Shown in pieces: positions 4,936 to 45,479 of a stretch of 64,000 nucleotides of DNA. The stretch is from assembly GCA_032718865.1 (NCBI GenBank), contig JALUTQ010000001.1:1364001-1428000 (forward strand), given 5' to 3'. A model generated the notes under the pieces. That model saw only the letters and a list, made by a program, of their open reading frames with translations, was not told the DNA's origin and searched no databases. The stretch's first letter is position 1, and each line of letters begins with the position of its first letter. The DNA is from Tilletia caries. Its lineage: Eukaryota; Basidiomycota; Exobasidiomycetes; Tilletiales; Tilletiaceae. A program made the translations under genes and the position numbers.

Positions 4936-5148
4936 GCCAGGTATACGTGGGTCATACACTCATACCCACATACCTAACTTAGTGGGTATGGCGGACCCCA
5001 TACCCAATACCGTACCTATACACACAGAGTAGATACTGGCATGCCCAAGATGGACCCGTACCCAGGCCGACTTCCGTATATCATAGTGCTTAAAGATCTT
5101 CCCGAACTCCGGGTTCCGCTAAGTTTCTGGTGACCAGCTGGCGAGCAG
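4936..5148. repeat. Short-word array of GTGGGTATG/CATACCCAC
   Basis: The words atacccac, gtgggtat, cataccca and tacccag recur on both strands between 4940 and 5070, forming imperfect palindromes (catacccacatac..gtgggtatg). There is no coding frame. It may be a small, degraded relative of the word-array elements elsewhere in the window. Confidence 0.4.
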
Positions 5149-5460
5149 TAAGGAGGGGCGCGGAGTAAGCCCCGGAGTGGGTTTCCCGGAGTTCCCCGAC
5201 TAGTCGGGGCCTCACTCCGGGGGAGTACGGAGTACGGAGTGCGGTTTCGAGGATTAACTCCCGCTGATTAGATTCTGCAGGAGTACGGAGCGCAAGCCTG
5301 TCATGTCCCCGGAGTACGGAGTACGGCAAGGCCTGGAGCTGATTTTTCCCCGGAGTACGGAGTGACTAGCTCGAATGCCAGACGGAATGCGGAGTTTCCC
5401 CGAAACTCCGGGGCGCTCCGGGGCCTTGCCTTTTTCAAAATCAGGTCGCAATTTCGAAAA
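5149..5460 (+). mobile_element. hAT-like MITE family A, 5' half only
   Basis: It begins with a mutated TIR (TAAGGAGGGGCGCGGAG) and follows the complete family A copy at 47644 up to ..aaatcaggtcgcaatttcgaaaa, then stops abruptly in the middle of the element. The sequence that follows is transposase coding DNA. The missing 3' half begins at this same point and is found in inverted orientation at 19233-19710. Confidence 0.9.
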
Positions 5461-7085
5461 CACTGTTATGGCCCGCAAGGAAAGTCTGAGAGGAGGAAAA
5501 TGGTGCGGTCCTCTACTTCGATTGCATGGCGAGTGGCTTCTAAGATTGGCACATCGATACCGCCCTGAATCGGCAACGCTGACACCGACCATGCGTCTGC
5601 TCTCTCTCCCTCTCCGTCAGACATCACAGGTTTTGAGGTCTGCATCGGGACACCAATCGAGGCACTGCATACATGGCTGCTTGGTCCGGTGAAGGATCTT
5701 TTTGCAAGTCTTGCTCGACAGGTCAAAAAGAACACACAGCACTTTCAGGAGGTTGCTACGCGTCTGAGTGACGCGAATCTAGGAGGAACAGATCTGTCGT
5801 CAAAGCTGGACGGAGTCTACTTGTTGAACAATGCTGGCGGTCTTACGGGAAAAGACATGCGCGCTCTGGCGCAGGTGGTATGGCTGTCGATACTTCCCAT
5901 CAAGGAGGCAGGAGTGCTTCCCCAGAGCACATGGGACGCGTGGAGATGGGCAGGTGTGGTCACAAGGCTCATGCTCATAGAGGAGCTTCCTAGGGACGCT
6001 TTGGACGAGTACAGGGCGAGTGCAGAATGAACAATGGAGGCTATGTTGTGGGAAACTGATGCTCACTCTCTCTTGGCCTCCATACTCTCGGACTTACAGG
6101 CACAGACGAAGACGGCAATGGACAACTTTTATGCAGCAATGCTGGTCGGCTCTCCGAACGAGGTCAAGGCCAAGAGAAAGTTTCACTTACTGGTACATCT
6201 TGCGGCCAGCGTCCAGCAGTACGGTACGGTCCGGCAAAGAACTTTGCAACAGAACGGTACGAATCTTTCAACTCTGTGGCTCGAAATGCTAGCATGTGCA
6301 GCAACCGAGCTGCCCCCTCCCGAGACATAGCACTCCGGATGTACGGACAGAACCTCATCCGCCAACACACGGCAAACGTTCGCCCTGATCGTAATGGTAT
6401 TGTTTCTGAGATTGCCTGCTTCGCAAATGCCTTTCGCGATGGCAAGATTCTCTCTCTCTTTATGGAATGGAGGCCCGAAAGAAAAGTCTCGTTCCAGGTG
6501 AGCTCTCTCCCAAGTCATGTCTACCGTCAGAACGAAGCTGCCACTCATGTTCTATGTTACTGAATCCATTTTGTGCATCGTTCATCATCGAACCCTGTAT
6601 CCTTTACATCCTCTACAGGCAGCTGGCAGCGAGACGCTCAGGCAGCAGCAGTCATAATCACGCAGAGCCATAGAAACGCCGCGCGTCGCTTGTTTCCGGA
6701 CGCCTATGTTGCCCTCGGCCAAGGCACCTACGACTGCCTACGATCTTGTGTGACGGCCGGCAATGAGATAATCTACGTCAGCTCCTTTGCTATTGTGAAC
6801 AACGCGATTGCCCCAGAAGCTGAAGAGTTCAATTTACAGAATGTGAGTGCATCACCAATGTTTGAATTGCAACTACATAAGTTCCGAATACAGAAGCGTT
6901 CTGACAGAGCTCTGGTTCCCCACGGGCCGCACCTTCTGATCTTCACGCAGACGAGGATCGTCAAGGTACTTGCTATCTTTGTTTGCCCACGCGGGCTCCC
7001 CAACATCGCGCCAGCGGCGGCCGGAAAACCTCTCGCGGTCGTCAAGCCGTTCTTTTTGAAAGATAGGGACAGATCCATCATGTCC
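5461..7085 (+). pseudogene. TPIEALH-family transposase, C-terminal half, broken
   Basis: The frame opening at the breakpoint reads NTVMARKESLRGG..GPLLRLHG. It splices through a GC-AG intron (5529-5629) into FEVCIGTPIEALHTWLLG and on to NNAGGLTGKDMRALAQ. I know this order (TP.E.LHT.LLG, then GL.GK..R.LAQ, then KFH.LVHL, then FATERYESFN) from a large basidiomycete transposase-like family without an agreed name. Damage: an in-frame TGA at 6028-6030, and a tandem 5-bp duplication (acggt acggt, 6221-6230) that shifts the frame just before FATERYESFN. Further exons appear after introns at about 6495-6630 (ends on RDAQAAAVI) and 6842-6891, and the frame is lost near 7085. The N-terminal half is at 19711-20556 on the other strand. 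Confidence 0.75.
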
Positions 7086-7089
7086 CTGG

Positions 7090-8491
7090 TGCAAGGTACC
7101 TCCGAAACTCTGATTCCAGTATCGGTATGTCTCTGCGACTCTGCCTCCTTTACACCTCGTTGTCCCTGCTATCTCTCATCCGTCATCACTCGCTTGCTAC
7201 AGGCAATCAGGTACGTCTGCAACGTCGCACATCACTGTACTCATCATCAGTGTCAGGTGGCGGCATCAGGGTTCCGCAGATAAGAACGCAAAATGGGTGA
7301 ATGTCCCCAAGACCTGTTCGCTCACTCGGACGTCAGACCTTTGATCCGATAAGTACCCTGTCCCACAAGCCTGTAAATAACATTCTCTTGCCCTGTAACT
7401 GTCGTCCGTTGAACCTGAAAAAAGCTTTAGTATATCCACCGTTCCCCCTTTAAGGACACTCTCTACCCGACACAGACCCCAAACCGAACGTTTCCCAGAC
7501 TCTTAGCTTGAGGTTTTAGAACATATTTTCACCAGCACATCATCAACAATTCCTTGCAAACGTGGATTTTTTTCAAGGAAGTATCTCTCCAAACCCGGAC
7601 GTCTCCTTGGTCGTTTTGTTGGCGTTTTCTGCCCCCAAAAGATGAGCCTGAACGGACGTGTTTTGATGGTGCTGGAGCCTTTTCGTTGCAGATGTGCTGA
7701 AGTAATAATTGGTAATCATTTCCGGCAATCTTTCCAAAATTCAGCTTTAAATTTGACCTCTTAACTGGGGAGCGGATGTCTTTGGAGGAGGAACAGTGGT
7801 GCCGGACAGGATCAACGGATGTCTGCCTTAAAGGATCGACGGAATTTTGCTCGAGTGAGCGAACAGGTCTGGGGGACATTCCACTAACTTGCGATAAGAA
7901 CGAGAACAGGTGGAAGCCAGGGTCAATGTCGTCGAGCACTCGGAGCAGACAACACCTCTCCTCGCCATCATGAACGACGCGTTGTGCCGGTCTGGATGGG
8001 CAATGAGTGAGATATACGGACCTGTGGTGCAAATGCGCACACCTCGAGATGTTCTCAACCTCATGGATCTGGCTCCTTGAGATTTGATCCCAAAAGGCAA
8101 AGCAAACGCGCCGATTATTATTGTGAACTCTATAGATCTCTTAAGTCTTCATCCTCATCACTCATAAGTCCCAGCTTCTGATGTCTGCTTGGCCATAGGC
8201 TCCGAAAGAAAGGGTTAAGTGGGCTGGAAGCCTGGAAGGTATCGTGGGAGCGGGTGCCACACTGACGTCTGACCACTGTCATGCGCGCGTTGCTCTTCGA
8301 AGGATTCCTGAAGGGTTCTCGTTTCGAACCGTCTCTGACCATTCCCGTTCACATGCGTGAATGATAATGGAATGGTGTCTGAAAAACGTGATCAAAACCG
8401 TTTGTCAGTCATTAACAGGGAGGCTCAAGCCACAGTTCCGGAACAATTAAACGGCGAAATGGTTCTGGCACATGCTCCACTATTTGGTGGT
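7090..8491. other. No recognisable gene
   Basis: Only short frames occur. A 167-codon minus frame (8032-7529) has no known motif and ordinary composition, so I do not call it a gene. No repeat from the families described here occurs before the family A fragment at 8492. Confidence 0.45.
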
Positions 8492-9032
8492 GTAGCTCGA
8501 ATGCCAGACGGAGTGCGGAGTTTCCCCGAAACTCCGGGGAGCCCGGGGCCTTGCCTTTTTCCAAATTAGTGTGCAATTTTGAAAATTTCAATCAGAAATG
8601 GGCATATTTTGCTCTGATTTTCAAAAATTTGGGGTTCGTATTGTGTATTGTTGAGCTCTACGACCGCCAACGATGATTCTGTCGAACAAACACGTGGATG
8701 GAAGGGCGGCAATCAATGTAAGGGTCCATATTTCTCAAGTTTTGTGGGACCTCTGCGAACTTTCCCCGGAGTACGGAGTTTCGGGGGAGTAGTCGCGCTC
8801 CGTCACCCCGGAGTACGGAGTCGGCTTTGAAATTTTACTAAATTTAGCCGGAGTACGGAGCTGGCGCAATGTGATGGGAAGATTCTGTGCGGAGCGCGGA
8901 GTGGAGTTTGGGTGACTGCCTAAAAATGAGAGGAGTACGGAGCACAAAATAGCGTCTCAAAATCAGCCGGAGTCAGCCGGAGTAGGGGCCCCGGAGCACG
9001 GAGCACTCCGGGGCCCTCCGCGCCCATCCTTA
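8492..9032 (+). mobile_element. hAT-like MITE family A, 5'-truncated
   Basis: It matches the complete family A copy from the tagctcgaatgccagacgg segment (47864 there) to its 3' TIR ..cgcgcccatcctta at 9032. The first 220 bp are missing. The next base starts helicase coding sequence (GTTCATCG, the likely 8-bp target duplicate), so the element was inserted in, or recombined into, a helicase gene. Confidence 0.9.
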
Positions 9033-10236
9033 GTTCATCGACGTCGGCACGGATCGGCCGAACCTACACCTCCGCGTACTCTCCATGCAACATCCGATCG
9101 AAGGCTTCGTGGACGTCCTGTCGGTACTGCCAGAGCTGTGGCAATCTGCCGCCGAAGGAGCCTCTACTGTGGAAAGGATGAAGAAGTTTCTGGTCACGCT
9201 CATATACATCAACAGCAAAGACGCGGCAACGAACCTGAAGCACGTACTGGACAAGTGGTGCTTGCGCGCCGGCTTCAAGGCCATCGTCCAGCTCTACCAC
9301 GCCGACCTCACCGACGAACACCGCTCCAAGATCCTCATGCTCATCAATACCGGAAAAATTCTGATCGTCATCTGTACCGACGCGTTTGGTATGGGGGCCA
9401 ACTGTCGAGCCATCTTGCGAGTGATCCAGTTGAAGTTATTCGGCGGGGTGTTGGCCTGGTGGCAGCGTATGGGCCGAGCAGGGCGCGACTTTGCGGATGA
9501 GGCCGAGGCGATCTTGTTTGTCGAGCCTACGCATATGACCGCCGAAATGCGAAAGCACATCGCCGCCACAGGAGAGTTGCCGACGCCTCCAGAGATCGAT
9601 GAAGTTGATGAGGACGGCCCCATTACCCTCGAGAACGACGTGGCGTTGATTTGGAGCGGAACGCACAGTTGGGCGGTCGCAAAGAAGATCGTATATGACG
9701 AACTCTTGATGCTTGCTCGGCACGGTCTCGAACGTGATGCGTGCATTCTTCGATTGGTTCTCGATCACCTTGCACAACCCAAGGCCGAGACGCTGCCAAG
9801 ACACGAGGAGCTGTACCATTCCAGCCGACCGATCCCTCCAGGCAGGGAGATGCCCTGTTGCTCAACGTGCGATTATCAGCCTCTTCCGTGCGTGCCCGAG
9901 GAGTTCGCTCTGTCCAAAGAGACGATCTCCGCTCTGCCGGGTATCACGAGTACCCAGAGCATCTTACGTGGTCGGCTGGAGGCGTGGCGATCGAAACAGT
10001 GGCCGGAGAAATGGAAGGGATTGAATCGAGCTGGACGGATGGGAATTGATGCGTTTATGGCCGAGCAGGACATCGATGCAGTCGTCAGCAACTTAAAGGC
10101 AATTGCGCACAACCTCAGCAAAGGAAACTCACGATTTAGTCTCTTCGTCAACATGCGGCCGAAGGATGTCGTTCTCCCGGATCTGCAGAAGGAGATCGTT
10201 GCAGTGCTGCGGGAGGAGCACGAGCAGGGAACGTAG
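9033..10236 (+). pseudogene. RecQ-like (telomere-linked type) DNA helicase, C-terminal half
   Basis: The frame is open from the element border (codon start 9034, FIDVGTDRPNLHLRVLS) to the stop at 10234-10236. It holds the second RecA-like lobe of a RecQ-family helicase: VTLIYINSKDAATNL (motif IV region), ICTDAFGMGANCRAI (motif V, about 9370-9415) and QRMGRAGRD (motif VI, about 9463-9490). A tail follows with paired cysteines (CCSTCDY, near 9856). The first lobe with Walker A and B is absent, cut off by the family A element, so the product cannot be an active helicase. It is closely similar over its length to the fuller copy at 32226-35930. Such RecQ-like genes are typical of basidiomycete subtelomeres. 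Confidence 0.85.
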
Positions 10237-10239
10237 CGC

Positions 10240-10560
10240 ACTACACTATTCGCGATACTATGAGGTACCGGTTTCCTGGTCATCTCCATCGCGACACATG
10301 CGAATTCGTCAGACTGCTGCCAATCACCACATGCTTGCGGAGGAAGTTGTTCGAAGCTCGCTTGCGGATGACCTTTTTCTCGATGAGTCTCCTCTACAAA
10401 TACGCCATACTGCTCGGTCAGCATCTGCGATGCGTCAATGGAGCTCGCATGTGAAAAATAAAGATACATCATGCTCCAACTTGGTTAGTCTTTCATCTCC
10501 GATTCTCTGAACATAATAAACATTGACTGCTAAATGCTGACGCCACTGTCTATTCAATTC
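10240..10560 (+). other. Helicase 3' flank, no secure gene
   Basis: A 64-codon frame (10260-10454) follows the helicase stop but has no motif. AATAAA at about 10457 could serve as a polyadenylation signal for the helicase locus. Confidence 0.3.
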
Positions 10561-10699
10561 TGTCCCCATCTTCGCAATGCATACATAGGAGCATCACGGA
10601 GCTGCTGGTGCTGTGTCTGAGTCGCCCGAGGACAGGATGACGAGCGAGGACGACATGCAGACGGATAAAGAAGATATGGGGGATAATCGAGGATGGCGA

Positions 10700-11747
10700 G
10701 GAGGGTCTGAGCGGAGATGAAGCAGCAAGTCAAGAGGACGGATCTGCGTCAAACGGAACCGAAAAGTCGGGCGGCTCTCGATGGAAGCATCACGGATTTC
10801 GCGCGCTTATCAGAGGCATGCATGACTTGAACGTGCTGGACTCAAACTTGGACAATAAGGAGAGAGAAAGGTTATGGGAGGAGGTGGACCGGCTGGTGAC
10901 GGATTCCAATCGCAAAATGAACTCCGACGTACGAACAACGGTGGCTTGTAAAAGCGCGTGGACGAGGGTTCTCAAGGCATACGAAGAAGATCAGAAGGTC
11001 AACCACATCGCTTCAGGAGTCAATATCAAGGAGGGAGAATGAGAGCAGATCATGTCCGATCTGGTAGGCCTCTGGCACAACCTCGTTGAAAGCCTCAAGA
11101 CGACAAGGTCGAAGAAAAAGTAGCGGCCCAAGGCACCAAGCGAAAAGATCCAGGACAAGGACATGCGTAGAATGGAGCTGAAGGGGGAAGAGGATGGCGA
11201 TGGAGAAAAGGATGAGGATGTGGCTCCAGAAGAGAAAAATGATAAGGAGAGGACGTCCCGCAAAAGCAAGAAACGCGGACGAAGATCGCAGGGCGAGCGT
11301 CAAATGCAAGAGCGCTCGGAGCAGGTCATCGACGCGTTCAGCACAATGGGCAAGCAGCAGCAGGAATCGATGGTCGAGCGTCTCGAGAAGGAGGAGAAGA
11401 TGCATCAAGACGACCTGGCCGAGCAGAAGGCATTCCGAATTGCGCAGGAGCAGAGTCACGACGCGGATCGGATTGCTCAGGACCGTCAACACGAGGCCTT
11501 CCTGCTGTTGGAGCGGGAGAAGATGCAGGCGGAGACCAAGCGAACCCAGGAGAAAAATCGTCGCTTCCAACAGATGGAACAGAGACTTCAGACGTGCCAG
11601 GACACCACCATTGCGCAGCAGCAAGAGCTGCAGCTCGAAGTGCGGCAAGGACAGACGGAGAACAGACAGCGGCAGGACAACATTGAGCGCATGCTCTCCA
11701 TCGTTGTTGCTCGACGGTCCCAAAGTTTCGTTCTCCCACTCTCATGA
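10700..11747 (+). pseudogene. Coiled-coil protein with two in-frame stops
   Basis: One frame runs from before 10818 to 11747 and is interrupted only by TGA at 11040-11042 and TAG at 11121-11123. The N-terminal part (FRALIRGMHDLNVLDSN, then RTTVACKSAWTRVLKAYEED) has the look of a small helical, DNA-binding-like domain, but I cannot name it. The part after the stops is Lys/Glu-rich (EEDGDGEKDEDVAPEEK) and then a long coiled coil (MQERSEQVIDAF through RRFQQMEQRLQ). Reading on through both stops keeps the composition constant, so this was one protein of more than 310 residues. It lies 0.3-0.5 kb downstream of the helicase fragment in the same orientation. Confidence 0.5.
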
Positions 11748-12501
11748 TTCAGATCAACAACCCTGACAGCGCTCGCATGTCGGCTCAAACCATTAACAAA
11801 CCTCAAAAAATATTCCAAAGCTCGAAAACCCTCCCGAAAAAAAGAACGACTCAATGTATCGACAGCGCTCATCAACTATGCTCTACTCCGTTTCTCGCTG
11901 GATATAATGGTGATACTTTGAAATGTACGATTAATTGGGTGGAAACTGTGCAACTGGGACAAGGTATTCGTGGAGAGAGAGGGTATCCAAACCAACTCGC
12001 ATAGAGGACTGACTTCCACTTATACAAGAAAGGCAATTGACAGACACCGCTACCTTGTACTCCTTGCCTAGTGGGGAGTTTAGCACCTACTGCAGCCTCT
12101 TCTCCTCGAATCTTGGGAAGGTTTGGTAATCCAACCAATGATCCCGGCACTTCAGCTCCTACGGTCGCTACTCCCGGCACTTCGGCACTTCGGCACTTCA
12201 GCTTCTACGGCCGCTGATTCCTGAGCGGACTTCGCCACTGCCTTTTCACCAGCAGTCGAGACTCGAGTTCAGCATGCCTAACGGGACGATTCTCCATCCC
12301 CTTAGCTTCTTTTCTATTTCACTCATGCTCATCGCAGCAATCATCAAGATTTTCCTGTTCTGACGCCTTTTAAGGAAGTGACTTGACTATGAAGGAGAAG
12401 TGACTTGATTATGAGGAAGCATGAAGGCGTGGGAAAGGGAGGTAAGAAGAAAGCTGGGGTCGGACGATGGAAGTGCCGGCGGGAGCATCCCTCCTCCTCA
12501 G
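11748..12501. other. No recognisable gene
   Basis: There are short frames only. Around 12140-12215 a short motif (cccggcacttc / gcacttcagct) is repeated in tandem. Confidence 0.4.
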
Positions 12502-12822
12502 TCAGAAAAGAAGTGGTACTGTCGTTGCTCCGTGCGCACAAGTCACACGTTCACGGAAGAGAAAGTTCACCTCGATTCGGTAGCGGGACATCGCCTTGTT
12601 GTGTCGTCGCTGTGGGGCCGTGGCTAGATCTTTGTATGGATCTTGAAGTCCCGGGCAGACATCTTCACGCGTTTTTGGACGAATCGATGATTTGGCGCAC
12701 GCCTCGAGTGTTCTCCGATCTGCCACAACAAAATTAGCATTCCAGTGAGGCGCAGCGACCGGGTCTGTTGCTCTTCGAGTGCGCGGTTTCCTTTCCTGAT
12801 CCGTCGGCTGAGACGTTGAAGC
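12502..12822 (-). CDS. Unrecognised coding fragment next to a family C element
   Basis: A minus frame reads HWNANFVVADRRTLEACAKS followed by a Lys/Arg/Gln-rich part to about 12505. Composition is protein-like and the opposite strand is less convincing. Its 5' end runs into the family C element at 12823, so it is truncated if real. No domain recognised. Confidence 0.25.
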   Translation of the reverse strand, partial: ASTSQPTDQERKPRTRRATDPVAAPHWNANFVVADRRTLEACAKSSIRPKTREDVCPGLQDPYKDLATAPQRRHNKAMSRYRIEVNFLFRERVTCAHGATTVPLLF

Positions 12823-13142
12823 TAAGTTTGTCCCCGGAGTTGACGCGGAGCTGGGGTTTTGTGGACTCCGCACTCCTCCGACGGAGGGCTCCGCCGGAGG
12901 CGGAGCCCGGAGCTCACTTTTGAGAATTTTTTGATCTTAAAAAGGCACGGAGTCCGCCTGGAGGACGCCATCGGAATTTACGCGGAGCGCGGAGCCCAAT
13001 CCTGGGCCCACTAGCCAAAAGTGCGGAGCGCGGAGTCGTCAAAATTGTGTGACAATTCCGGCGGAATTTCCGCAAAATTCCGACGGAGCTGTGAGGTCAC
13101 GTGATAGTCGAAAACAGGGGTCACGTGACCTCATTGTGGGTG
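12823..13142 (+). mobile_element. hAT-like MITE family C, 3'-truncated
   Basis: It begins TAAGTTTGTCCCCGGAGTTG (a variant of the family C TIR) and follows the complete copy at 15313 through the tcacgtgat..tcacgtgacc palindrome, then diverges at about 13142. Confidence 0.9.
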
Positions 13143-14679
13143 CGCGGCCTGTAGCGTTGAGGTTTGCAAAGCACAGCGAGAAGAGGCAGGAGATGGTGAG
13201 GGCAGAGAAGCAGGGTGAAAAGGAGTTAACAGAAGAAGTCAGAGAACCAGCGGCAGAAATGATGAGACGAAATGCAGGGGTAAAGAGCTGAGAGGGTTGC
13301 GGCGAGAGAGAAGGGCTTTATGCAATCGTAAAGTGTGAAATGAGGTGACTGAGGGGACCACGGTTCCTGGCAAGCGGGTTGATTCAACGACCGTTCGTAA
13401 AGTGTCTACTGTGCTTTTGACTTCTCCACGTACGTGTGCTGTCACCGTCCTTCGGTGAAGGTACCTTGCTGAATTCACCAATCCTTTCAACTTCAGACCT
13501 ACTATCATTCGACGCGGGCGGGTTGAGAAGGGACGGGAGGGTCAAGGGCGTCATGGGATTCCGCGAGGGTACGTTTCCGGTTCGTGTCTGCCGCTCGGTT
13601 CGGGCCTTCCTATCGGACGGCTCATTGGCCATGTCGTCCGATAGCAAGGTCCCATAAAGAAGAGGGGGGGGGGGGGAGGGGGGGAGAGGTCACGCTTGTC
13701 CGTTACTCTGACCGGGCATGTACACAGGTATGTGGTCTGTCATCTGCCTCTACTTCTCAGCCAAGTCTTTGAACTTCTCGCTGACCGATTTACTTTTTCA
13801 TGCTCTAGCGGACTTTGGCAATGAACAATATATTCCAGCATATGTTTTCAGCTTCTATCCACCGCACCACTACAGCATCGCTCATCTGCCATCGTTGTCC
13901 TCGTGCTGTCGTCGTCACAAACTTTGAATCTATGAAATGCTAACTCTTCCACTCACTTTTCCAAATCCATACATCTGCCCCCATTTCTCAAGCTCTCTAC
14001 AGGAACACAACACGCGTCCGTCTCCGACTGCCTGGTTCTCTACTCCTCTCCATTCTTCTTTCAGCTGGGCGGGTCAATGCTGATATTTTTCTTCCTGTTC
14101 AATTCGGAAAGGAAGGGTCAAGGGCCAAACCCGTTTACATTGCTGACACTAAGTTCTATCGCACATGCAGGGTATCCATACCAGTTACACACACCTAAGC
14201 TTGCTTCATTGCCACGGGCTCATTGTAAGACGCAAAATAATCAGCCTTGCGCTTCACCGGGACGGGGCTGGTCAGAGTCGACACCGGGGTCTTCCACTTT
14301 CCAGAAGTCATGGTCCTCAGTCCTCCGTGTCGAGCACAATAACGTCCGGCACAGTATTGGTCGTCTTCTATCGTGCGGGCGAGGTCGTGATCCTCTCGCA
14401 TCTCGGAGGGGCGACCGTGCTGGAAGAGACAGCAATGATGTTAGAAAGCTACATAATATTAATCTGAACTCAACACTGAACACATACGTCGAGCTCCTCA
14501 ATGTGGCCCGCTCCACGCGGTCGAGGTTCTCAATGTGGCCCGCTCCACGCGGGGCCACATGGCGCTGCCCCCCAACGTGGGCAGAGCTCGGCTCCGACTA
14601 TAGTCCACGTTTTTTGGCATAATCATAGTCGTACTCGTAGGCGTGTTTTGAAAATCCGAAACAGTCATGCCAAATGTAC
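13143..14679. other. No recognisable gene
   Basis: A G-rich run (23 of 25 G) lies at about 13662-13688. A 30-bp direct repeat (tcaatgtggcccgctccacg) is present at about 14500 and 14531. Frames are short and without motifs. Confidence 0.4.
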
Positions 14680-14945
14680 AAACATCCAACGGGTTCGTCC
14701 GCTCGCCCATAAAATGGTCCGTTTGTCCTCTGAGTCTCTGCTCCCTTCAGCCAATATTTCCTTCCGCTCGCCCAATATTCACCTCCGTTCCCCCATCATA
14801 CACTTATAGACAGAGCTCCGCTCCCCCCTCTTTCTGCCCCGTCTACCCAATATTAAGAGCCGATGTACCCTAATTTCATAGATTCCGCTCGTCCATTTTT
14901 ACATACGTTTACCCTCTTCAAGCCTTCGTTCCCCCGCTTATATAA
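14680..14945 (+). repeat. Degenerate array of CCGCTCGCCCAATATT-like words
   Basis: Variants of cgctcgccca, cgttccccca, cgtctaccca and cgttcccccg, often followed by atatt or atac, recur about every 20-30 bp. The reverse-complement version of the same kind of array lies at 16150-16430, on the other side of the family C element. Confidence 0.5.
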
Positions 14946-15312
14946 ACCAAGGAAAATCAAATATCGTCCAACGAAAAGCTGGAGCATGGGAGCATAAAGG
15001 CACACGGTCAGCTCTGTCTGATTCTAAGTATGCCGTCTAACCCCATGGGAATTTCAACACGATTCTGGAGAATGGAGTCGTTTCTACCATGGGGATGTGT
15101 GTTGTAGTCATACCCATGACTTCAATCCCATGATTTTTTGAGGGCAACATTTTCGTGTGGGATCGGCAGAAAAAGTCTTACAACACGGTGTTGCGAACTC
15201 GCCGCACAGTGTCGCATCGCTAAATTCTCACTCAGACCTCCACATCAGCTGTCACGTGACTGATGCGCCACGTGTTTCTGTCTGCTCACTCCAATTAAGG
15301 TGGCACCTTAGC

Positions 15313-16102
15313 TAAGGTTGTCCCCGGAGTTGACGCGGAGCTGGGGTTTTGCGGACTCCGTACTCCTCCGACGGAGGGCTCCGCCGGAGGCGGAGCGCGG
15401 AGCTCACTTTTGAGAGATTTTTGACCTTAAAAAAGCACGGAGTCCGCCTGGAGGACTCCGCCGGAATTTACGCGGAGCGCGGAGCCCAATCCTGGGCCCA
15501 CTAGTCAAAAGTACGGAGCGCGGAGTCGTCAAAATTGTGCGAAAATTCCGGCGGAATTTCCGCGGAATTCCGTCGGAGCTGTGAGGTCACGTGATCGTCG
15601 AAAATAGGGGTCACGTGACCTTATTTTTGGGTGCGCTCCGCCGGAATTCCGTCCAAGTTCCGCGGAAATGTGCGGAATTCCGAGAAAATAGGCATCGCCG
15701 AGACACGCGCAGGAGATAAAACAGGCATCATCATCCGTTGAGAGCTTCAGAATAGCACTGGAGTCAATACCGCAACAATGTCGGATGGTGAATGTATAGC
15801 TCTGATTGTGTTAGAGTCATTCTGAGAGCAAATTATACCACCACTGCGCTCCGACGGAATTCCGCGGAATTCCGAGCTCCGCATACACGGAGCACGGAGG
15901 AGCATTATGAAAACGCACAGAAAAACGCGGAGCGCGGAGCTGGGATTTCAACTTTTTGTATAATTCCGTCGGAACGCGGAGCTGAGTTTTTTCAGCTCTG
16001 TCTTAGTCTGCGGAGGCGGAGCTCGCCTCAAAAAGTCAAAATTCCGGCGGAATTTGGAAGTGCGGAGGCGGAGCCCTCCGCGTTACTCCGGGGACAACCT
16101 TA
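15313..16102 (+). mobile_element. hAT-like MITE family C, complete, 790 bp
   Basis: Ends are TAAGGTTGTCCCCGGAG and its complement ..ctccggggacaacctta. It is flanked by a perfect 8-bp duplication ACCTTAGC (15305-15312 and 16103-16110), the length produced by hAT transposases. The interior is packed with gcggagcgcggag-type and ccgcggaattccg-type words plus a tcacgtga pair, and has no transposase frame. Other copies: 12823, 16781 (minus), 38224, 59538 (3' end). Confidence 0.95.
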
Positions 16103-16110
16103 ACCTTAGC

Positions 16111-16780
16111 TGGACTTTTTGCTTTTATTTTGGCTGGACTTTTTGTTTTCCATCACGGGGGAACGGACCTTTTGAGGGTTGCTTGGGGGCGAACGTATCT
16201 ACCAGACGGACATGTGCAGGTGTGATATTGGACAGACGTAGCAAAATTTTGGATGAGTGGGCCCTTCACTCTGGGCAGGTGGGCCGAAAAGGCGGGGGAA
16301 CGGGACAACAAACGGGATATATGAGGGTGTAATAATGGATAAATGCTGTGATTTAATGGGTAAATTAGACTCGGTTTTCAGAGGGCGAACGGACCAAAGC
16401 GTGGGCTAACGTAGGAGATATTGGGCATTCGCCTAACCTGCAACAGTCATGGCTGTAAGTCTGACTACAGTGGCATGGTCGACTATAGTCGCAGGCTTTT
16501 GCGCAGCCGACTGTCTGCACTACAGTATGACTATAGCCAAAATTCTAACGCCAGTCCGCCACGCCGCCACTATAGTCGGACTTTGGGACATAAATTTTCG
16601 CACTATAGTTGCACATCAAATTTTAGACTATAAATAGTTATGTTGTAGGCCGCTTTTGATTGTCTAAAATTGGATATAGATAGGCTATGCCGCCATGGCT
16701 CGACTATCCAACAATAATAGTCGTACTGTGACTGACTATAGTGTTTCATGGGCAATGGATATCACAGTCTGACTGTAGCT
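16111..16780. repeat. Word-array DNA: CGTTCGCCC-like (rc) and GACTATAGTC-like
   Basis: 16150-16430 has gggcgaacg/gggggaacg-type words, the complement of those at 14680-14945. 16440-16770 has many gactatagtc, actatagt and gactacag words on both strands. No coding frame. Confidence 0.5.
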
Positions 16781-17361
16781 AAGGTTGTCCCCGGAGTAAC
16801 GCGGAGGGCTCCGCCTCCGCACTTCCAAATTCCGCCGGAATTTTGACTTTTTGAGGCGAGCTCCGCCTCCGCAGACTTAGACAGAGCTGAAAAAAACCAG
16901 CTCCGCGTTCCGACGGAATTTTACAAAAGTTGAAATTCCAGCTCCGCGCTCCGCGTTTTTTCTGTGCGTTTTCATAATCCTCCTCCGTGCTCCGTGTATG
17001 CGGAGCTCGGAATTCCGTCGCAGCACAGTTGTGGTTAAGTTGCTCTCAGGGGACTCTAATATAATCAGAGCTATACATTGACCGTCTGAAATTGCTGCGG
17101 TATTGACTCCAGTGCTATTTTGAGGCTCTCAACGGATGATGACGTTTGTTTTATCCCCTGAGCGTGTCTCGACGATGCCTATTTTTTCGGAATTCCGCAG
17201 ATTTCCGCGGAACTTGGGCGGAATTCCGGCGGAGCGCACCCAAAATGAGGTCACGTGACACCTATTTTCGACTATCACGTGACCTCACAGCTCCATCGGC
17301 ATTCCGCGGAAATTCCGCCGGAATTGTCACACCATTTTGACGACTCGGTGCTCCGCACTTT
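16781..17361 (-). mobile_element. hAT-like MITE family C, inverted, truncated
   Basis: It starts with TAAGGTTGTCCCCGGAGTAA (the 3' TIR read backwards) and follows family C in reverse to about 17361, where it breaks off before the other TIR. Confidence 0.9.
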
Positions 17362-17949
17362 GAAAGAATGATATTTTTGACATGATCATGACAAATATGA
17401 TCACAGCTATGACATTTTGACAAATTACGTTTGGTTGAAATGAAAAAGGGTGATGATTAATGTGGTATTGTTGAAGATTGCATCTTCATAGCAACCTCCA
17501 CGTGGTTGTGACTTTTTCATAGTCTTTCCTATATTGATGAGACCCTTAGTCTCATTTGTGACTCCACTTCCAGTCTCATCGATTCCTGCGTTTGTGACAC
17601 GAATCGTTGCGCAACGATGTGGCACACATTGTTCATTGCGCAATGGCTGTCCTCCCCCTGTACCCACAAAGCTATATAAGCAGGCACTTTCCACCACCAC
17701 TGTTTCCCCCGCTCCTATTGAAGTTCACCACACACGTTCCTGCTTCCACTCTCCCTCGTCACCTCCTCACCTTTGACCTCGTCCTCCTCATCTTTGACCT
17801 CGTCCTCCTCATCTTTTACCTTCTCGCCCTCATCCTTGACTTCCCCGTCAAAGGTTGCATCCCTTCCGTATCTTCAGGCATAGGCTAGAGTTCTGTCAGC
17901 ACGTCACTTCGCCCTAATTGCGAGGGGGTACTACGTAGCTGATCGTCCG
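17362..17949. other. No recognisable gene
   Basis: Pyrimidine-rich plus strand, with a duplicated ctttgacctcgtcctcctcat at about 17772-17812. No motif-bearing frame. Confidence 0.4.
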
Positions 17950-18480
17950 ACACCGTACCTGAGATACTGGGATTGCTCCTGCAACTCGTCAAGCGACTTC
18001 GGCCTCTCTCCTCCACCTTGTTGGTCCTCCCAAGGTGAGTAGTCGAGCACTGAGCACCTAGCATTTACAACATTCATGTTCGACGGTTGGGCAGTGGTAG
18101 TGAGGGGGAGCGATCATTGCAAGGAGCTTTGCGTGCTCTGGAAGTCCGTGTTCCTCGCGCGCGGCTGCGTGAGACGATCAAGATGGAAAATCCGGGTGAG
18201 ACCGCTTGTAAATGGAAAGGCGGCTACATCGGCGTCTTTATGGTGTCCCATTCGCCAGCTCTCTGTGGCACATCGACGGGCATCACAAGTTGACTCGCTA
18301 CAAGATTGTGGTACACGGTGGTATCGATGGCAAGAGTCATTCGGTCAAAATCATGAAGGCAGCGAACAACAACAGAGCGAGCACGGTCTAACGGCAGCCT
18401 TGTGCTCTACAGCGACTGAACGAGGAAGCTTTATCACAGGTACCTCTTCAAGCAATCAACGAATCGAGAGCATGTGAGTC
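17950..18480 (+). pseudogene. Fungal integrase-like (DDE) transposon protein, badly broken
   Basis: Segments of a familiar basidiomycete integrase-core protein appear in changing plus frames. ALRALEVRVPRARLRETI is the helical domain before the core. SLWHIDGHHKLTRYKIVVHG, followed by GIDGKSHSVKIMKAANNNRA (about 18260-18395), is the first catalytic-Asp region. NERGSFITGTSSSNQRIES (about 18417-18475) is the region before the catalytic Glu. The stretch that should lie between the last two, with the second catalytic Asp, is deleted. Multiple frame changes show that it is inactive. Confidence 0.6.
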
Positions 18481-18647
18481 GATCTGCAGCGGTGGTCCAC
18501 CGTCAGATTCGCAGAAGTCTTTGGGGACTTGGGGAGATGGAAGTCACGGACATTGTTGATTGTACTGACCCGGTACACATCTGATGTCTGCACCGAGTAT
18601 TCATTCATTCTTGCCCTGAACGAGAGCCTGTAACACTTCCAGTAAAA

Positions 18648-19025
18648 ATGGAATCAGTATCCGATGGCCACGAAAGGGCTCGGCGGATTGTCGCCGATGC
18701 AACAATGGATCAAAAGTCAATATCAATTCATCTCTATGATCCGGGTCCCAAACACAAGAACCTGAACCTGACCGACACTCTGTCGTCTTTTACCAGGCAC
18801 GATTACACCTCGATCACAGGGCGCATCCTTTCCGGAGACATCGGAGCCCGTTGGAGACTTGAACGCATGTATCAGGATCAGGGGCCGTCTGTCCTTGTCG
18901 ATGACGTTCAACAGCAGCTCGCCAACATCGGCCCATTGGCCTTTCCCCTTCTCAAAGACGCAGGTATTTCACATTACTGCCGTGTAATGGAGGTAGTGGC
19001 TCTTTACTTGGAACCGGAGCTGTGA
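18648..19025 (+). CDS. Unrecognised 125-residue ORF
   Basis: It is open from ATG 18648 to the stop at 19023-19025, with ordinary composition (DATMDQKSISIHLYDPGP..). An intron-like gtaatg/ag pair is possible near 18960. No domain recognised; it may belong to the integrase relic upstream or be chance. Confidence 0.25.
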   Translation: MESVSDGHERARRIVADATMDQKSISIHLYDPGPKHKNLNLTDTLSSFTRHDYTSITGRILSGDIGARWRLERMYQDQGPSVLVDDVQQQLANIGPLAFPLLKDAGISHYCRVMEVVALYLEPEL

Positions 19026-19232
19026 TCAATGCATCATACTCTTCTACATTGACTTCATCTTTCACATCCAACTGGCTGATGACTTGAGGGCGTGAAAGAC
19101 CTGAACTTAGACCACACTCCACAGACATCTGTCATATGGTCTCGGTACAGGAGCTTTTTTGCGGAGCACAAGTCCGATTGTGATAAATATACGGAGCACG
19201 GAGTAATTTTTTGTGCGCAACTGCGACTTCGA

Positions 19233-19710
19233 CGAGGATGGGCGCGGAGGGCCCCGGAGTGCTCCGTACTCCGGCGCCCCTACTCCGGCTGACTCCGGCT
19301 GGTTTTGAGATGCTTTTTCGCGCTCCGTACTCCGCTCATTTTTAGGCAGTCGCCCCAACTCCACTCCGCGCTCCGCACGAAATCTCCCCATCTCATTGCG
19401 CCAGCTCCGTACTCCGGCTAAATTTAGTAGAATTTCAAAATCCACTCCGTACTCCGAGTTGACGGAGCGCGACTGTTCCCCCGAAACTCCGTACTACGGG
19501 GAAAGTTCGCAGAGGTCCTACAAAACTTGAGAAATTTGTACCCTTAGATTGATTGCCGCTCTTCCATCCACGTGTTTGTTCGACAGAATCATCGTTGGCG
19601 GTCGTAGAGCTCAACAACACACAATATTAACTCCTAAATGAGAAATCTGAAAAGTGATTTTGCCAAATTTTTGAAAACAAGAGCAAAATATGCCCATTTC
19701 TGACTGAAAA
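19233..19710 (-). mobile_element. hAT-like MITE family A, 3' half only, inverted
   Basis: Read on the minus strand it starts ttttcagtcagaaatgggca in mid-element and continues to the 3' TIR (mutated, ..cccatcctcg). Its broken inner end corresponds to the broken inner end of the 5' half at 5149-5460, and both abut the two halves of the same transposase gene. Confidence 0.9.
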
Positions 19711-20556
19711 TTTCTAGCTCCTCTGCCGGTATGGGAACAGCTCCGGTAGCGAGTTCTCTCCGCAGAGCGCGAAGCATCGCACATTGCCGCATGGTGGCCT
19801 CGTCCTTTGCGCCTGACTCGGTCCTCAGCCGCTTGATTTCGGTCTCGCTGTCTCCTCTAGCCGCTGCTTCAATTTGACTCCACAGCTGAGCCTTTACAAC
19901 CGTGTAAGAACGCGGATTTCCAGCCTGGTAGTGAGAAATGCTGATGTCAGTCACCAGAAACCCTCATCTCCCTCGCTGTTCTGTTGACTCTCACTGTAAT
20001 ATATGTAGCCATTCCTTCTGGATCGCGAAGGGCTTGAGCAGATCCATCGACGTGGCAGAGTCGACAGAACTGGTTCCCCTGCAGGCCGATGGGAGAACTC
20101 AACGAAGCGGCCATCGGATTATCGGCCATCACAGCGAGCAAGTACGGGCGAACGAGAACCTCCTGTCCCTGAGCCACGTCAAAGGTCGTGAATGGTTGTG
20201 CATGTAGGCGTCTGTATGAGAAACACCGTCGAAGCGGCGTCAGCATTCATTCGGCGGACGTCTCACTATCAATGCGCCGGTCGACTCACATCAGCTCGTC
20301 CACCACGGCGGACAGTTGAACTTCACCGCTGACGTCTTTGCTGATTGACGTGTGCCTAACGTGGGCGTCTAGATCGAGCTGAGAGCGATCAAGCGTCGCA
20401 TTGGAAAAGTAGATCGCCTCGTGTTTGTTCCATCTCTTTGATCGGGCTCTGGAGACATCATCTATGAAGAGCACGACGGGAACACTGTAGAGACGTTTGC
20501 CGTTGGAGATGTAGCGATCGACGTTCGTCTGTGAAAGCTCCTCGTCCTCTCGATCT
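19711..20556 (-). pseudogene. TPIEALH-family transposase, N-terminal half
   Basis: Minus-strand exons read DREDEELSQTNVDRYI, then VPVVLFIDDVSRARSKRWNK, HVRHTSISKD, then QEVLVRPYLLAVMADNPMAA, IGLQGNQFCRLCHVDG, and, after an intron (about 19965-19922), RSYTVVKAQLWSQIEAAARG down to VPIPAEELEN. These are the upstream conserved blocks (LFLDDVSGN.SKQWN.H; ADNPM.AE..SH.GL..N.FCR.C) of the same family whose downstream blocks lie at 5461-7085. An intron (about 20590-20557) precedes the first exon given here. The gene stops at the inversion breakpoint inside the codon run for ELEN. Confidence 0.7.
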
Positions 20557-20643
20557 GCAGAGACATAACGATATGGTTGGTTAATCACGGTGACAACTGA
20601 CATGCACATCTTTCCCCTCGCTCCAGCCCAGTCTCCAGTTTTG

Positions 20644-20910
20644 AATGCTAATAAAGCGCGCGTTTTAGCCGGGGTCAGGTTCGCTAACAATGAGTGCTCG
20701 CTTGAGGATGCAGCTCGCCTTTCTTATGCCCCTAAAGAGACTATTAGGCGGCACAGGAGTGGAATCCAGTCTCGTAGTACGACGGAGCACGGCCGTCAGC
20801 GACTCTCGGACACTGATGAAGCGGCTATTTTCGACTTCATAACTCATATGTAGGAAACGGGGTTTCCTTGCGCCGTGGTCACCAGCAAGACGAGATCCTC
20901 GGTCTGTCAT
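20644..20910 (+). pseudogene. Pogo-type transposase head: Psq/Tc5-like HTH domains
   Basis: The frame reads KARVLAGVRFANNECSLEDA and on through YAPKETIRRHRSG (first helix-turn-helix, Psq-like), then RQRLSDTDEAAIFDFITHM, TAG at 20851-20853, and in the same frame ETGFPCAVVTSKTRSSV (start of a CENP-B/Tc5-like second HTH). The in-frame stop ends the conserved match in the middle of the second domain. It partly overlaps the first intron/exon of the minus-strand transposase. The DDE domain is missing. Confidence 0.5.
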
Positions 20911-26917: not shown

Positions 26918-26931
26918 AGTATGCTGAATGC

Positions 26932-27702
26932 TAAGGATGGGCGCGGAGGGCCCCAGAGTACGGAGCACTCCGGGGCCCCTACTCCGGCTGATTTTGAGAT
27001 GCTTTTTCGTGCTCCGTACTCCGCTCATTTTTAGGCAGTCGTCCCAACTCCACTCCGCGCTCCGCACAGAATCTTCCCATCACATTGCGCCAGCTCCGTA
27101 CTCCGGCTAAATCTAGTAAAATTTCAAAGCCGACTCCGTACTCCGGGGTGACGGAGCGCGACTACTCCCCCGAAACTCCGTACTCCGGGGAAAGTTCGCA
27201 GATGTCCTACAAAACTTGAGAAATGTGGACCCTTTCACTGATTGCCGCTCATCCATCCACGTGTTTGTTCGGCAGAATCATCGTTGGCGGTCGTAAAGCT
27301 CAACAACACACGATATGAACCCCAAATGAGAAATCTGAAAAGAAATTTTGCCAAATTTTTTGAAAATCGGAGCAAAATATGCCCATTTCTGACTGAAATT
27401 TTCAAAATTGCAAACTAATTTTGAAAAAGGCAAGGCCCCGGGCGCCCCGGAGTTTCGGGGAAACTCCGCACTCCGTCTGGCATTCGAGCTAGTCACTCCG
27501 TACTCCGGGGAAAAATCAGCTCCAGGCCTTGCCGTACTCCGTACTCCGGGGACATGACAGGCTTGCGCTCCGTACTCCGCAGAATTCAATCAGTGGGAGT
27601 AAATGCTCGAAAATGCGCTCCGTACTCCCCCGGAGTGAGTTCCCCGACTAGTCGGGGAACTCCGGGAACCCCACTCTGGGGCTTACTTCGCGCCCATCCT
27701 CA
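26932..27702 (-). mobile_element. hAT-like MITE family A, near full length, inverted
   Basis: Left end TAAGGATGGGCGCGGAGGGC and right end ..cgcgcccatcctca. The whole element matches 47644-48430 in reverse. The flanking 8-mers (CTGAATGC and ACTCATGG) do not match, unlike other complete copies. To the left the DUF6589-type gene is cut short in an intron (ccag|gtgagt); to the right lies a hAT gene without its own left TIR. Confidence 0.93.
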
Positions 27703-27817
27703 ACTCATGGCCTCAAAAAGTCTGGGGAACACTCTGGGTCAAAGCCAGGCCGGTGGGATCACTATGAACCCCTCTTCTCCCACCAATTTTTCTAACGCGC
27801 AAGCGCATAATAGTTAA
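27703..27817 (+). other. Possible 5' part of the hAT gene
   Basis: An ATG at 27762 opens a short frame (MNPSSPTNFSNAQAHNS) that stops before the BED-finger exon. A small unrecognised intron could join it to 27818, but I see no clear donor/acceptor pair. Confidence 0.2.
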
Positions 27818-32225: not shown

Positions 32226-35200
32226 CTGTGCCCAGAGACTATCGCCATCCTCGCCCGATCAGATCTTCACCATCCTCCGAAGCCCAGTCAAATTGTGGTT
32301 GCCGACAGCGTGCGAATGGGCCGCGATACGATCTACATTTCTCCGACGTCCACCGGCAAAGGACAAGCATTCGAGCATCTGGATCACCTGCTCCCAGACG
32401 GGGTTATCGTAATCATCGAGCCCCTGCAGTCGTTGACCTCAGAGATGGCAGAAAGGTTAGCGAACCAACCCTTCAGTCTTGACATCATCTTGAGCCGCAC
32501 AACTCACTAAGTGCTTTCCTCCTTCAACAGATTCAAGGACCGTGCAACCTACGCGGACAGCACCAACAAGAGCCCAGCCCACCTGCAATCCATCCGGGAC
32601 GGCGAGTATCGCCTCGTCTTCACGACCGCCGAGACCGCGACTGAAGGCGACTTCCTCGACATCGTCTTGCGGAATGATCGTTTCCGTCAACGAGCCGTCG
32701 CATTCATCTTCAACGAGGCACACACGCTCGACCAGTGGGGTCGCGACTTCCGTCCGAAGTTCCTCCAGCTTGGACAAGTACGCAGACACTTGTCGGTCCC
32801 TGTCCTGATCATGTCAGCAACATTGACACCAGAAGCACGGGAGGCCTGCCAATCGACACTCAACCTGCGTAATCCATCTGTCATCGATGTGGGCACCGAT
32901 CGACCGAACCTGTTCTTGCGGGTCTTGCCGATGCGCTATCCGGCCGCGTCCTTCCTCGATATCCTATCCGTCATGCCGGAACTGTGGCACGGCGTCGATG
33001 CAGCTGCATCTGTAGAGGAACGAACGCGTCAATTTCCTGTCACGTTGATCTATATCAACAACAAGAACTTAGCTACATCAATGCACCGCGTCATCAACGA
33101 GTGGTAAGGATGTCGACCATCTCCGCGGTTTTCGCGGAGCTCCGCGTCTCCGCGACTTTTTCTCCGCCGTCAGCCTCGGAGAAGCTCGCGGAGACCTCCT
33201 TTCCGCCGGTCATTCATCGCGGAGGGAGATGTTTGTTAGGCTAAGCTGCCTGGAAAACAGCGGAGGGAGACGCTTCAGCTTGCTGCCAAAATCGCGGAGT
33301 TGCGGAGACGCTCGGTAAAAATGTCATCTCCGCGGCATCTCCGGCGTAACTCCGCGTCTCCGCTACTAAGTGATTCGTCTCCGTGGAAACCCCGTGAAAC
33401 TCCATGAAACCGCATGAGACTCTGGAGTTTTAGCGGAGTTTTTGGCGAGTCTCATCGATTGGAGAAAAAGTCTCATGTCACGTGCGGGGGTCTCAGGTCT
33501 GGGACAGGTCGCCGATCCTGGCCCCGGGCTAATCTCCGACGCACCCTCACCGCTCACTGGTGCCGAATCTTTACCAGCTTCTCCTCCAGAACGGTCAAGG
33601 AAGGCTTCTATTAAATCTATGATGCTCAAAAGAAAGATGCAAATGATCAGAGTAGTCGTTGGATCGTCGAACTTGAGGGTCACTTAGCAGCGGAGGAGGG
33701 GATCTGAGCGCTGGACTTTTTTTCGCACCGGCAACCTCGGTGGATGTCGAGCGGCTTTTCTCAAAGGCTGGGCACCATATGCCACACCACTTCGTCCCCG
33801 ACTGAAGGTGATCAAACTGGGACGACTAGTTTCGAGGAATCGGCGGCTATGGCAGGACCCTCAAAGCATATACGGACGGATGCTGACGAGACCGAAATAT
33901 GAACGAGTGGGGATTCCGATGAGGAGATTTTCGGAACACGAGAAGTAGATGCGTTGAAGAGACTTGTGACTGTTTAAGATTCCAAATGCAAATGATTTTC
34001 GACTGATTTTGTTTCGCGGAGACGAGTCACTTAGTAGCGGAGACGCGGAGTTACGCCGGAGACGCCAAAAAAATCGCGGAGGGAGATGCTGTATGAGGAG
34101 GGACAGTCTATGGCGGCCGCGGAGGGAGACGCTCAGCCCCTACAATTTCAAACGCGGAGACGGAGATGCCGTCAGAAGCCCCAGAAAATGGCGGAGATAG
34201 GCAGGAGCTCCGTGCAATCTCCGCAGCAAACACGGAGAGGAGACGGAGCTCCGGGAAAGTGACACGGAGACGCCGCGGAGACGTGACGGCGGAGAAAATC
34301 TCCGCGGAGATCTCCGTCGACATCCTTAACGAGTGGTGTGTGCGCGCCGGTTTCGACGATGCCGTTGATGTCTACCACGCCGATATGTCGGAAGAGCACC
34401 TCGAAGTGGTTCATTCTCGAATCTTGACGGGAAAGACCCTGATCGCGATCTGTACCGATTGTACCGATGCCTTCGGTATGGGCGCCGATTGTCGCCCGGT
34501 CAAGAGGGTGAGCCAGCCCAAGCTTTTCGGCAGCGTTTCGGCATGGTGGCAGCGTGCGGGTCGAGCCGGTAGGGACTTTGCGGATGAGGCGGAAGAGATC
34601 TGCTTTGTCGAGCCGACGCATATCGATCCGGAAACGAAGAAGGCCCTCGCGACAACCGGACAGCTTCTCCCCATTCAAGATCCGCCCGTCCCTCAGCACC
34701 TGGACGACCTTCCTTCCTTGGCCAAAGACGCAGCAGTGATGCGAGCCGGCGAGAATGAGGCGCCAGCGGCGCGCAAGATGGTAGATGACGAGCTCCTCGC
34801 ACTGTCCGCTCACGGGCTTGCCCGTACCGCATGCATCCGACAGCTCGTTCTCGATTATCTGCAGCAACCGGAGAAAGAGCTGTTACCCACGCACAGCGAG
34901 CTATACTCTTCCAGTCGTTACGTACCTGATGATCGAAAGATGCGTTGCTGCACAACCTGCAACCCTGAACCCTTGCCCGACCTTCCCAACGAACGAAAGC
35001 CTCCACCATCTCCAGTGATCCCCACCCTCCCCGGCGTAATGGCTCTTCAAAAGGCCTTACAGGTCCGCCTTGAGGAGTGGCGGGCAGAGCAGTGGCGAAC
35101 GAAATGGAAAGGAACCAACCGAGCAGGCAGAATGGGCATCGATGCCTTCCTGAGCATGCAAGCCATTGAATCCGTCATCAGTAACCTCAAGACGATTGCC

Positions 35201-44690: not shown

Positions 44691-45479
44691 ACTTGCTTTC
44701 TAGCTTGCACTACACGGTACACGGGTACACCTTCTTCTCACTCCAGCTTCCCCCCCGCCGCGACCGCAACATACCCGTGTCTCGAGGCCCTTCTGTGCTC
44801 CTGTCCTTTCCCTTCCTTGCGCTCCTTCTTCCGCTCTACCACTTCCTCGCCTTCCCTTACACGTTCTTCATTTCCCATCATGACTCGGGACAGTCGTCTT
44901 CCGTCGGTGGGGATGTGCTGGACGAGGTCCACGTGGCTCAGTTATCTTATCTCGATCTCTTCCTCTCCACTTCCTTCTTTTCCCACACGCATCTCGCATA
45001 GCAACACCAGTACCTCCACATTTCCCACGCTATCCTCTCTCCTCCTCATCTTTTCCCTTCCCAAGCTCATCCCTTGTACTTAGTCCTTTCTTGCTCGTCA
45101 TTCATCACTCTTCTACACCTTGCACTTAGCACTTGCTTTGCCTTACAGCTAGAGACTGGAGCCGTTCAGCACATCCCCACCGGCAAAAGACGACTGTCTC
45201 CAGTCGTGATCTGGACCGGAGAAATGCGATGAGCATGGAGCGAGAACGCAGACAGGGATGGGGCGCATGGAACGAGTGCAAAGGGGGGATGGAGAGCAAG
45301 GTGAAGCTGTGAAGAATCAAAGAACAGGATGATAGCGACGGAGAAAAAAGCATCTAAAAGCCCAGTCCCGAAGTCAACTCGACTGAATGGCAGCGTAGTC
45401 GGTAACTCGGAAGGAAGAAAGAAGAGAAGGCGCAAAGAGAGCGGAAGAGCACGGTCGCATGGTGCCAAAGCTGGAGAGT

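What the first reader, a model, noticed from the sequence alone, without database searches (positions are those of the whole stretch)
5457..19713. A ~14.2-kb inversion whose two breakpoints lie in a MITE and in a transposase gene
At 5460/5461 the 5' half of a family A MITE joins the C-terminal half of a TPIEALH-family transposase (plus). At 19710/19711 the 3' half of a family A MITE (minus) joins the N-terminal half of the same type of gene (minus). Turning 5461-19710 around joins 5' half to 3' half of the MITE (..tcgaaaa + ttttcagtcag) and N to C half of the gene. The gene then reads VPIPAEELEN-TVMARKESLR without a frame break and continues by a GC-AG intron into GTPIEALHTWLLG. Both junctions share a short A/T run, so end-joining at microhomology is likely. 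One event explains four broken ends.
Basis: partly seen in the sequence, partly recalled or inferred. Interest (0 to 1): 0.85.

Follow-up and report, generated by a model that had tools for sequence, protein, structure and literature searches.

The report
Small inversion broke two transposable elements
In the genome of a wheat bunt fungus, a 14-kb piece of DNA appears to have been cut out and put back the wrong way round, splitting a short mobile element and a transposase gene in two; it is a cleanly preserved example of a known kind of accident, not a new system.

Summary
Confirmed. At 5460/5461 the first 312 bp of a ~790-bp MITE abut the C-terminal part of a transposase gene. At 19710/19711, minus strand, the complementary rest of a MITE abuts the preceding part of the same gene. 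Tests with the pieces kept apart support one inversion. (1) A Tilletia indica protein runs through the gene breakpoint: residues 1-27 match the right piece (26/27), the next ones the left piece; three paralogues match both pieces. (2) The MITE parts are complementary to within 5 bp and carry private changes at equal rates. (3) Their outer flanks, now 14 kb apart, are adjoining parts of one older repeat in which the MITE had nested. The junctions fit an exchange at a shared GAAAA with one base differing, which favours end joining at microhomology over recombination between repeats. Two contig lengths identify the genome as Tilletia caries TC1_MSG. Reads, strains and a syntenic relative could not be examined. 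The gene is a 5'-truncated transposon copy (when truncated is unknown), so little function is at stake. Ordinary in kind.

The parts
5107..5148 (+). Left outer flank of the split MITE: one side of an older family-B repeat; 5141-5148 is the place of the target-site duplication
   Evidence: 41-bp match (80-88%) to uninterrupted family-B copies in L047, L048 and L049, ending 10 bp before the match of the right flank
5149..5460 (+). First 312 bp of a family-A MITE (MITE X)
   Evidence: 96% identical to copy 47644-47955; begins with the family's terminal repeat, one base changed
5460..5461 (.). Left inversion junction, just after the shared GAAAA
   Evidence: MITE match ends at 5460; gene match begins there
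5461..8494 (+). 3' part of a transposon with the C-terminal part of its transposase gene, down to a terminus ..GGTGGTGTA
   Evidence: exon matches to L025-L029, tblastx to L027 up to 8059; terminus as in L025 and L027
5529..5620 (+). Probable GC-AG intron (GT donor in L026, L027, L028)
   Evidence: sequences; no transcript; the T. indica model has no intron here
8493..9034 (+). Second family-A MITE (MITE Y), missing its first 222 bp; abuts the transposon terminus, so the transposon probably sits in it
5461..19710 (.). Inverted segment, 14,250 bp: transposon part, MITE Y, a helicase ORF, several repeats, and a stretch 10300-12392 with no DNA match elsewhere in this genome
19150..19234 (-). Right outer flank of MITE X: the other side of the family-B repeat
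   Evidence: 88% identical to one copy each in L047, L048, L049 and 85% to a second copy in L048, starting 10 bp after the left flank's match
19235..19710 (-). Remaining part of MITE X; lacks the final bases and the target-site duplication
   Evidence: 92% identical to 47951-48428; end compared
19710..19711 (.). Right inversion junction, within the run GAAA
19711..20568 (-). Preceding (middle) part of the same transposase gene; matching stops near 20568
   Evidence: main exon matches to L025-L027 and L029 at 53-74% aa; tblastx; 26/27 to P0001 at the junction

Best explanation
A single inversion of 14,250 bp. In the earlier order MITE X (plus strand, nested in a family-B repeat) stood whole on the left and a transposon copy on the minus strand stood on the right. 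Two double-strand breaks, one 312 bp into MITE X and one in a transposase exon, were repaired with the fragment between them turned round. The two sites share GAAAA in inverted orientation and the exchange seems to have lost and gained nothing, so end joining guided by this 5-bp microhomology is the likeliest repair route (about 0.7, given the inversion). Shown: the four ends, their complementarity, the continuous gene in T. indica, the adjoining outer flanks. Inferred: the breaks, the repair pathway, that it was one event, and the length of the A run in the unbroken gene (from the protein and the pieces; no DNA of an unbroken close copy was seen).
For: Gene continuity: P0001 of T. indica crosses the breakpoint; L025, L026 and L027 match both pieces in order, with 33 nt between the two matches in L025, and P0001 residues 2-52 align across the point in each of the three at 50%. 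Same subfamily: main exons of the right piece 74, 57 and 61% and of the left piece 70, 73 and 59% identical to L025; further downstream exons of the left piece 40-58%. MITE complementarity within 5 bp. Empty-site test: outer flanks are adjoining parts of a family-B repeat, 10 bp apart in four copies in three loci, of 40 listed matches. Equal rates of private change in the two MITE parts, 6/312 and 10/471, Fisher P 1.0, against 34 copies. No long inverted homology at the breakpoints: best match 33 bp at 82%, away from the junctions. A shared run of 5 or more in 0.43-0.49% of random pairs of positions.
Against: MITE X has no matching target-site duplication, whereas 25 of 25 copies with both canonical ends have one. 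Nine of the 34 copies had no canonical pair of ends by that test, and one of these, 27704, is near full length and also shows no matching flanks. A ~20-bp deletion at the 3' end accounts for MITE X but is an added event. The right junction has one base unlike the expected run. The copies nearest to the two MITE parts are not the same. No reads, strain or syntenic relative was examined: the T. indica protein shows the gene, not the 14-kb order. Only one relative's protein was found, and none for the exon at 20286-20723.
Confidence: 0.92

Rival explanations
1. Assembly artefact: the assembler joined the segment the wrong way round, and the chromosome has the uninverted order.
For: Reads could not be examined; the region holds many repeats.
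Against: False inversions normally need inverted repeats at both ends (recalled); here about 5 bp are shared and the best longer match lies away from the junctions. The published assembly that this genome matches reports 317x Nanopore and 1,269x Illumina coverage.
Confidence: 0.05
2. Two or more independent events (translocations, deletions, separate MITE copies) happened to leave complementary ends.
For: High-copy MITE family (224 first-look candidates, 40 scored); no matching target-site duplication; nearest copies of the two parts differ.
Against: Independent breaks would have to be complementary in a MITE (within 5 bp of about 790), in a gene, and in the outer family-B flanks (within 10 bp) at once.
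Confidence: 0.03
3. Inversion by recombination between inverted repeats (NAHR), for example between MITE copies.
For: MITE Y and the 3' part of MITE X are now inverted repeats, 403 nt at 92% (I1).
Against: The junctions join MITE to gene, not MITE to MITE, and no long homology is shared there.
Confidence: 0.01
4. A sub-case of the best explanation (its odds are not additional): the same inversion made by replication template switching at the same microhomology instead of end joining of two breaks.
For: Microhomology fits either route; a predicted 10-bp hairpin ends exactly at the MITE breakpoint in copy 47640, and hairpins can stall forks (recalled).
Against: A reciprocal exchange without duplication or loss is simplest with two breaks; template switching needs two reciprocal switches (inference).
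Confidence: 0.2

Closest known systems
Inversions by end joining of two breaks, as set out in a paper on the Drosophila inversion E9 (PMC6861252, passages read)
   Same: Two breaks in non-homologous sequence, fragment rejoined in reverse, presumed unique origin
   Different: 14 kb, both breaks inside transposable elements, 5-bp microhomology, fungal
TE-associated rearrangements in Verticillium dahliae (PMC4971763, passages read)
   Same: Plant-pathogenic fungus, breakpoints in transposons, attributed to faulty double-strand break repair
   Different: [quoted passage not shown] here no long homology was found
hAT-type MITEs (family traits recalled)
   Same: 17-bp terminal inverted repeats (read) and 8-bp target-site duplications
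   Different: About 790 bp, long for a MITE; coding capacity and an autonomous partner were not examined
CACTA/EnSpm-like transposons with tnp2-type transposase (Pfam PF02992)
   Same: A weak Transposase_21 match in one exon of paralogue L027; a 3-bp AGT on both sides of the C4 copy if its ends are ACACCACC/GGTGGTGT (my reading)
   Different: Match below Pfam's cut-off; no CACTA terminus; the C15 copy shows no matching flanks

Membership tests
Inversion by end joining at microhomology | No long homology between the breakpoints | tested here: met
   best match 33 bp at 82%, not at the junctions
Inversion by end joining at microhomology | Short shared sequence at the junctions, more than chance | tested here: met
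   GAAAA on the left, GAAA on the right; 0.43-0.49% of random pairs of positions reach 5 bp, 1.6% reach 4
Inversion by end joining at microhomology | Two reciprocal junctions with complementary halves | tested here: met
Inversion by end joining at microhomology | Uninverted order at the same locus in a relative | not testable with these tools
   Only the gene's continuity in T. indica was seen
NAHR inversion | Both breakpoints in inverted copies of one repeat | tested here: not met
hAT-type MITE (family A) | Terminal inverted repeats and 8-bp target-site duplication | tested here: met
   25 of 25 copies with both canonical ends match in at least 7 of 8 bases; 9 further copies of the 34 had no such pair of ends
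hAT-type MITE (family A) | Related autonomous hAT element with the same ends | not tested
   not searched
CACTA/tnp2 transposase | Pfam Transposase_21 above the curated cut-off | tested here: not met
   23.0 bits against a cut-off of 28.6 in one exon of L027; no family in the three window gene pieces that belong to it, nor in P0001

The most novel reading that the evidence does not exclude
The MITE's internal A/T-rich hairpin is itself a fragile site: in copy 47640 the 3' arm of a predicted 10-bp hairpin ends at exactly the base where MITE X broke, and the exchange falls on the GAAAA of that arm. Hairpin cleavage in MITEs would then seed conservative inversions in this genome, and the family-A copies (224 first-look candidates) should hold more such scars.
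Probability: 0.08. Interest if true: 0.5.

Novelty: new member of a known kind. Interest (0 to 1): 0.25.

Why it matters
It is a base-resolved, self-documenting inversion scar: both disrupted units and even the outer repeat supply the earlier order without a second strain. Such scars could be counted genome-wide to measure how often small inversions arise by microhomology in repeat-rich fungal DNA; the one fungal study of which I saw passages (Verticillium dahliae) points mainly to homology between transposons. No functional effect is evident.

Tried and rejected
A target-site-duplication test on MITE X failed at first sight; the family-B comparison explains it by a ~20-bp loss. A first count of private changes (15/471 in the 3' part) was too high: five of the 15 are shared with L033, which the 30-row set had left out; against all 34 copies it is 10/471. 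A search for relatives of the exon at 20286-20723 gave none. No Pfam family was found in the window's gene pieces. The missing first 222 bp of MITE Y were not found in the window. Pairing the 5' and 3' MITE hits (20 of 40 paired) says nothing about breakage, because both lists are capped at 40. A breakage hotspot at MITE position ~316 is not supported: none of the 34 copies ends there, but these were picked from the best matches and are not a random sample.

Papers: a search on fungal inversion breakpoints with microhomology listed 2 papers, by title not such a case (listing only); Tilletia with hAT and CACTA gave none; Tilletia with transposable elements and inversion listed 5, none read. PMC7184893 was read only in passages and does not mention CF319. 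That no such inversion is in print for Tilletia rests on these searches alone and is not claimed beyond them.

The window's genome gives no file and no relatives, so no strain comparison was possible. The three protein searches went to two gene pieces and the helicase ORF.

Full report
What the window is. It is C1:1364001-1428000 of a 38,104,258-bp genome in 40 contigs. Two contig lengths, 2,689,501 and 1,798,756, equal the largest contig and the N50 printed for Tilletia caries TC1_MSG (PMC10684912, passages read; that paper gives 38.18 Mb and 46 contigs). The window is therefore very probably from that assembly.

The MITE. Family A has about 790 bp and 17-bp terminal inverted repeats. Of 34 copies examined, 25 showed both canonical ends, and all 25 have an 8-bp target-site duplication with at least 7 of 8 bases equal; three further window matches (the two parts in question and a 70% one) were left out before this count. 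In the window, 5149-5460 corresponds to reference positions 5-316 and 19714-19235 (minus) to 312-789. The two parts are complementary, overlapping by about 5 bp at GAAAA. They differ from the majority of 30 copies by 10/312 and 20/471 (Fisher P 0.57); one of the 30 copies is more diverged than the first part and nine are more diverged than the second. Private changes against all 34 copies are 6/312 and 10/471 (P 1.0). So the two parts have aged alike. The nearest copies of the two parts are not the same, but distances are nearly tied.

The outer flanks. Left of 5149 and beyond 19235 (minus) lie pieces of another repeat, family B. In L049 the match of the left flank ends at 1490 and that of the right flank starts at 1501; two copies in L048 and one in L047 show the same order and a 10-bp interval (four copies looked at, 40 matches listed). 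MITE X had thus nested in a family-B repeat, and its two ends were once neighbours. The missing terminal bases, duplication and about 10 bp are a deletion of about 20 bp. This test does not use the breakpoints and is the strongest single argument for one inversion.

The gene. The left piece (from 5461) and the right piece (19711 upward, minus strand) match the same loci L025, L026 and L027 (C15, C7, C4). Main exon identities to L025 are 74, 57 and 61% (right piece) and 70, 73 and 59% (left piece); further exons of the left piece are 40-58%. L029 also matches both; L028 was matched by the left piece only. In L025, 33 nt separate the last match of the right piece from the first match of the left piece. 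A T. indica protein, CF319_g9072 (218 aa), runs through: residues 1-27 match 19792-19712 at 26/27, the next residues match from the junction, and 79-218 match 5608-6027 at 94%. The paralogous elements run about 8 kb from TACACCACC (three copies) to GGTGGTGTA (two copies; the C7 copy is cut). The window copy ends with the same terminus at about 8494, abutting MITE Y (8493-9034), but stops matching near 20568 on the other side, about 5 kb short of the C4 element's start. Whether this truncation came before or after the inversion is not known. Its class is uncertain: one exon of L027 has a sub-threshold tnp2 match.

Mechanism. Left junction: MITE up to ..CGAAAA, then the gene. Right junction: the gene up to ..CTAGAA, then ATTTTCAG of the MITE. 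Of 34 other copies, 26 have GAAAA at this place, 3 differ and 5 were not parsed. An exchange at a shared GAAAA accounts for both junctions with no base gained or lost and one A/T difference; for the gene side this rests on the protein and the two pieces, not on DNA of an unbroken close copy. A shared run of 5 or more occurs for 0.43-0.49% of random pairs of positions, and of 4 or more for 1.6%. The two regions share no long inverted homology at the breaks. End joining at microhomology is therefore favoured; template switching is not excluded. The MITE break lies in an A/T-rich stretch (70% A/T; 7% of the 30-bp windows of the MITE reach that), at the 3' foot of a predicted 10-bp DNA hairpin in copy 47640 (141-nt region, z -2.5). 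MITE X itself has a changed base in that arm. This is suggestive only.

Known context. Inversions by end joining of two breaks are well described (PMC6861252, passages). Fungal rearrangements with transposons at breakpoints are described for Verticillium dahliae, where eight of 12 rearrangements reconstructed in detail lie over highly similar TEs and two over other extended similarity (PMC4971763, passages). Nothing here departs in kind.

Limits. No reads, no second strain and no syntenic locus were available. The T. indica protein shows the gene's continuity there, not the 14-kb order. Whether the inversion is fixed, polymorphic or an assembly error cannot be decided here, though the last is unlikely.

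Noticed in passing
whole genome; 5149-5460 and 19235-19711 as queries: Family-A MITEs give 224 and 216 first-look candidate places, 40 scored each, whereas the published repeat table of the matching T. caries assembly lists 2 hobo-Activator elements of 108 bp and 1.06% interspersed repeats. The native MITEs seem to be missed by that library-based count.
   Followed up: partly
8484-9034: The transposon terminus ..GGTGGTGTA abuts a MITE from its position 223 on, as if the transposon had inserted into this MITE; the MITE's first 222 bp were not found in the window.
   Followed up: partly
9034-10233: Helicase_C ORF, 93% identical to a T. controversa protein, directly after a MITE end; a second ORF at 34097-35560 has a Helicase_C match below the cut-off.
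   Followed up: partly
42558-42800 and 44914-45156: Two direct repeats of 243 bp, 100% identical, starts 2,356 bp apart: possibly the LTRs of a small, recent element.
   Followed up: no
20615-20882: Stretch just upstream of the truncated transposase piece is 83% identical to C21:590510-590776 and may mark the truncation.
   Followed up: partly
35872-38359: Two overlapping minus-strand ORFs match the start and the end of Pfam DUF6589, a probable broken or intron-bearing gene.
   Followed up: no
C15:769569-777588, C4:520266-528693, C7:75237 on: Three copies of the related transposon, 97-99% identical to each other over the compared stretches; the C7 copy is cut at its 3' side.
   Followed up: partly
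26931-27704: A near full-length family-A MITE whose flanks show no matching 8-bp duplication: perhaps another rearranged copy.
   Followed up: no
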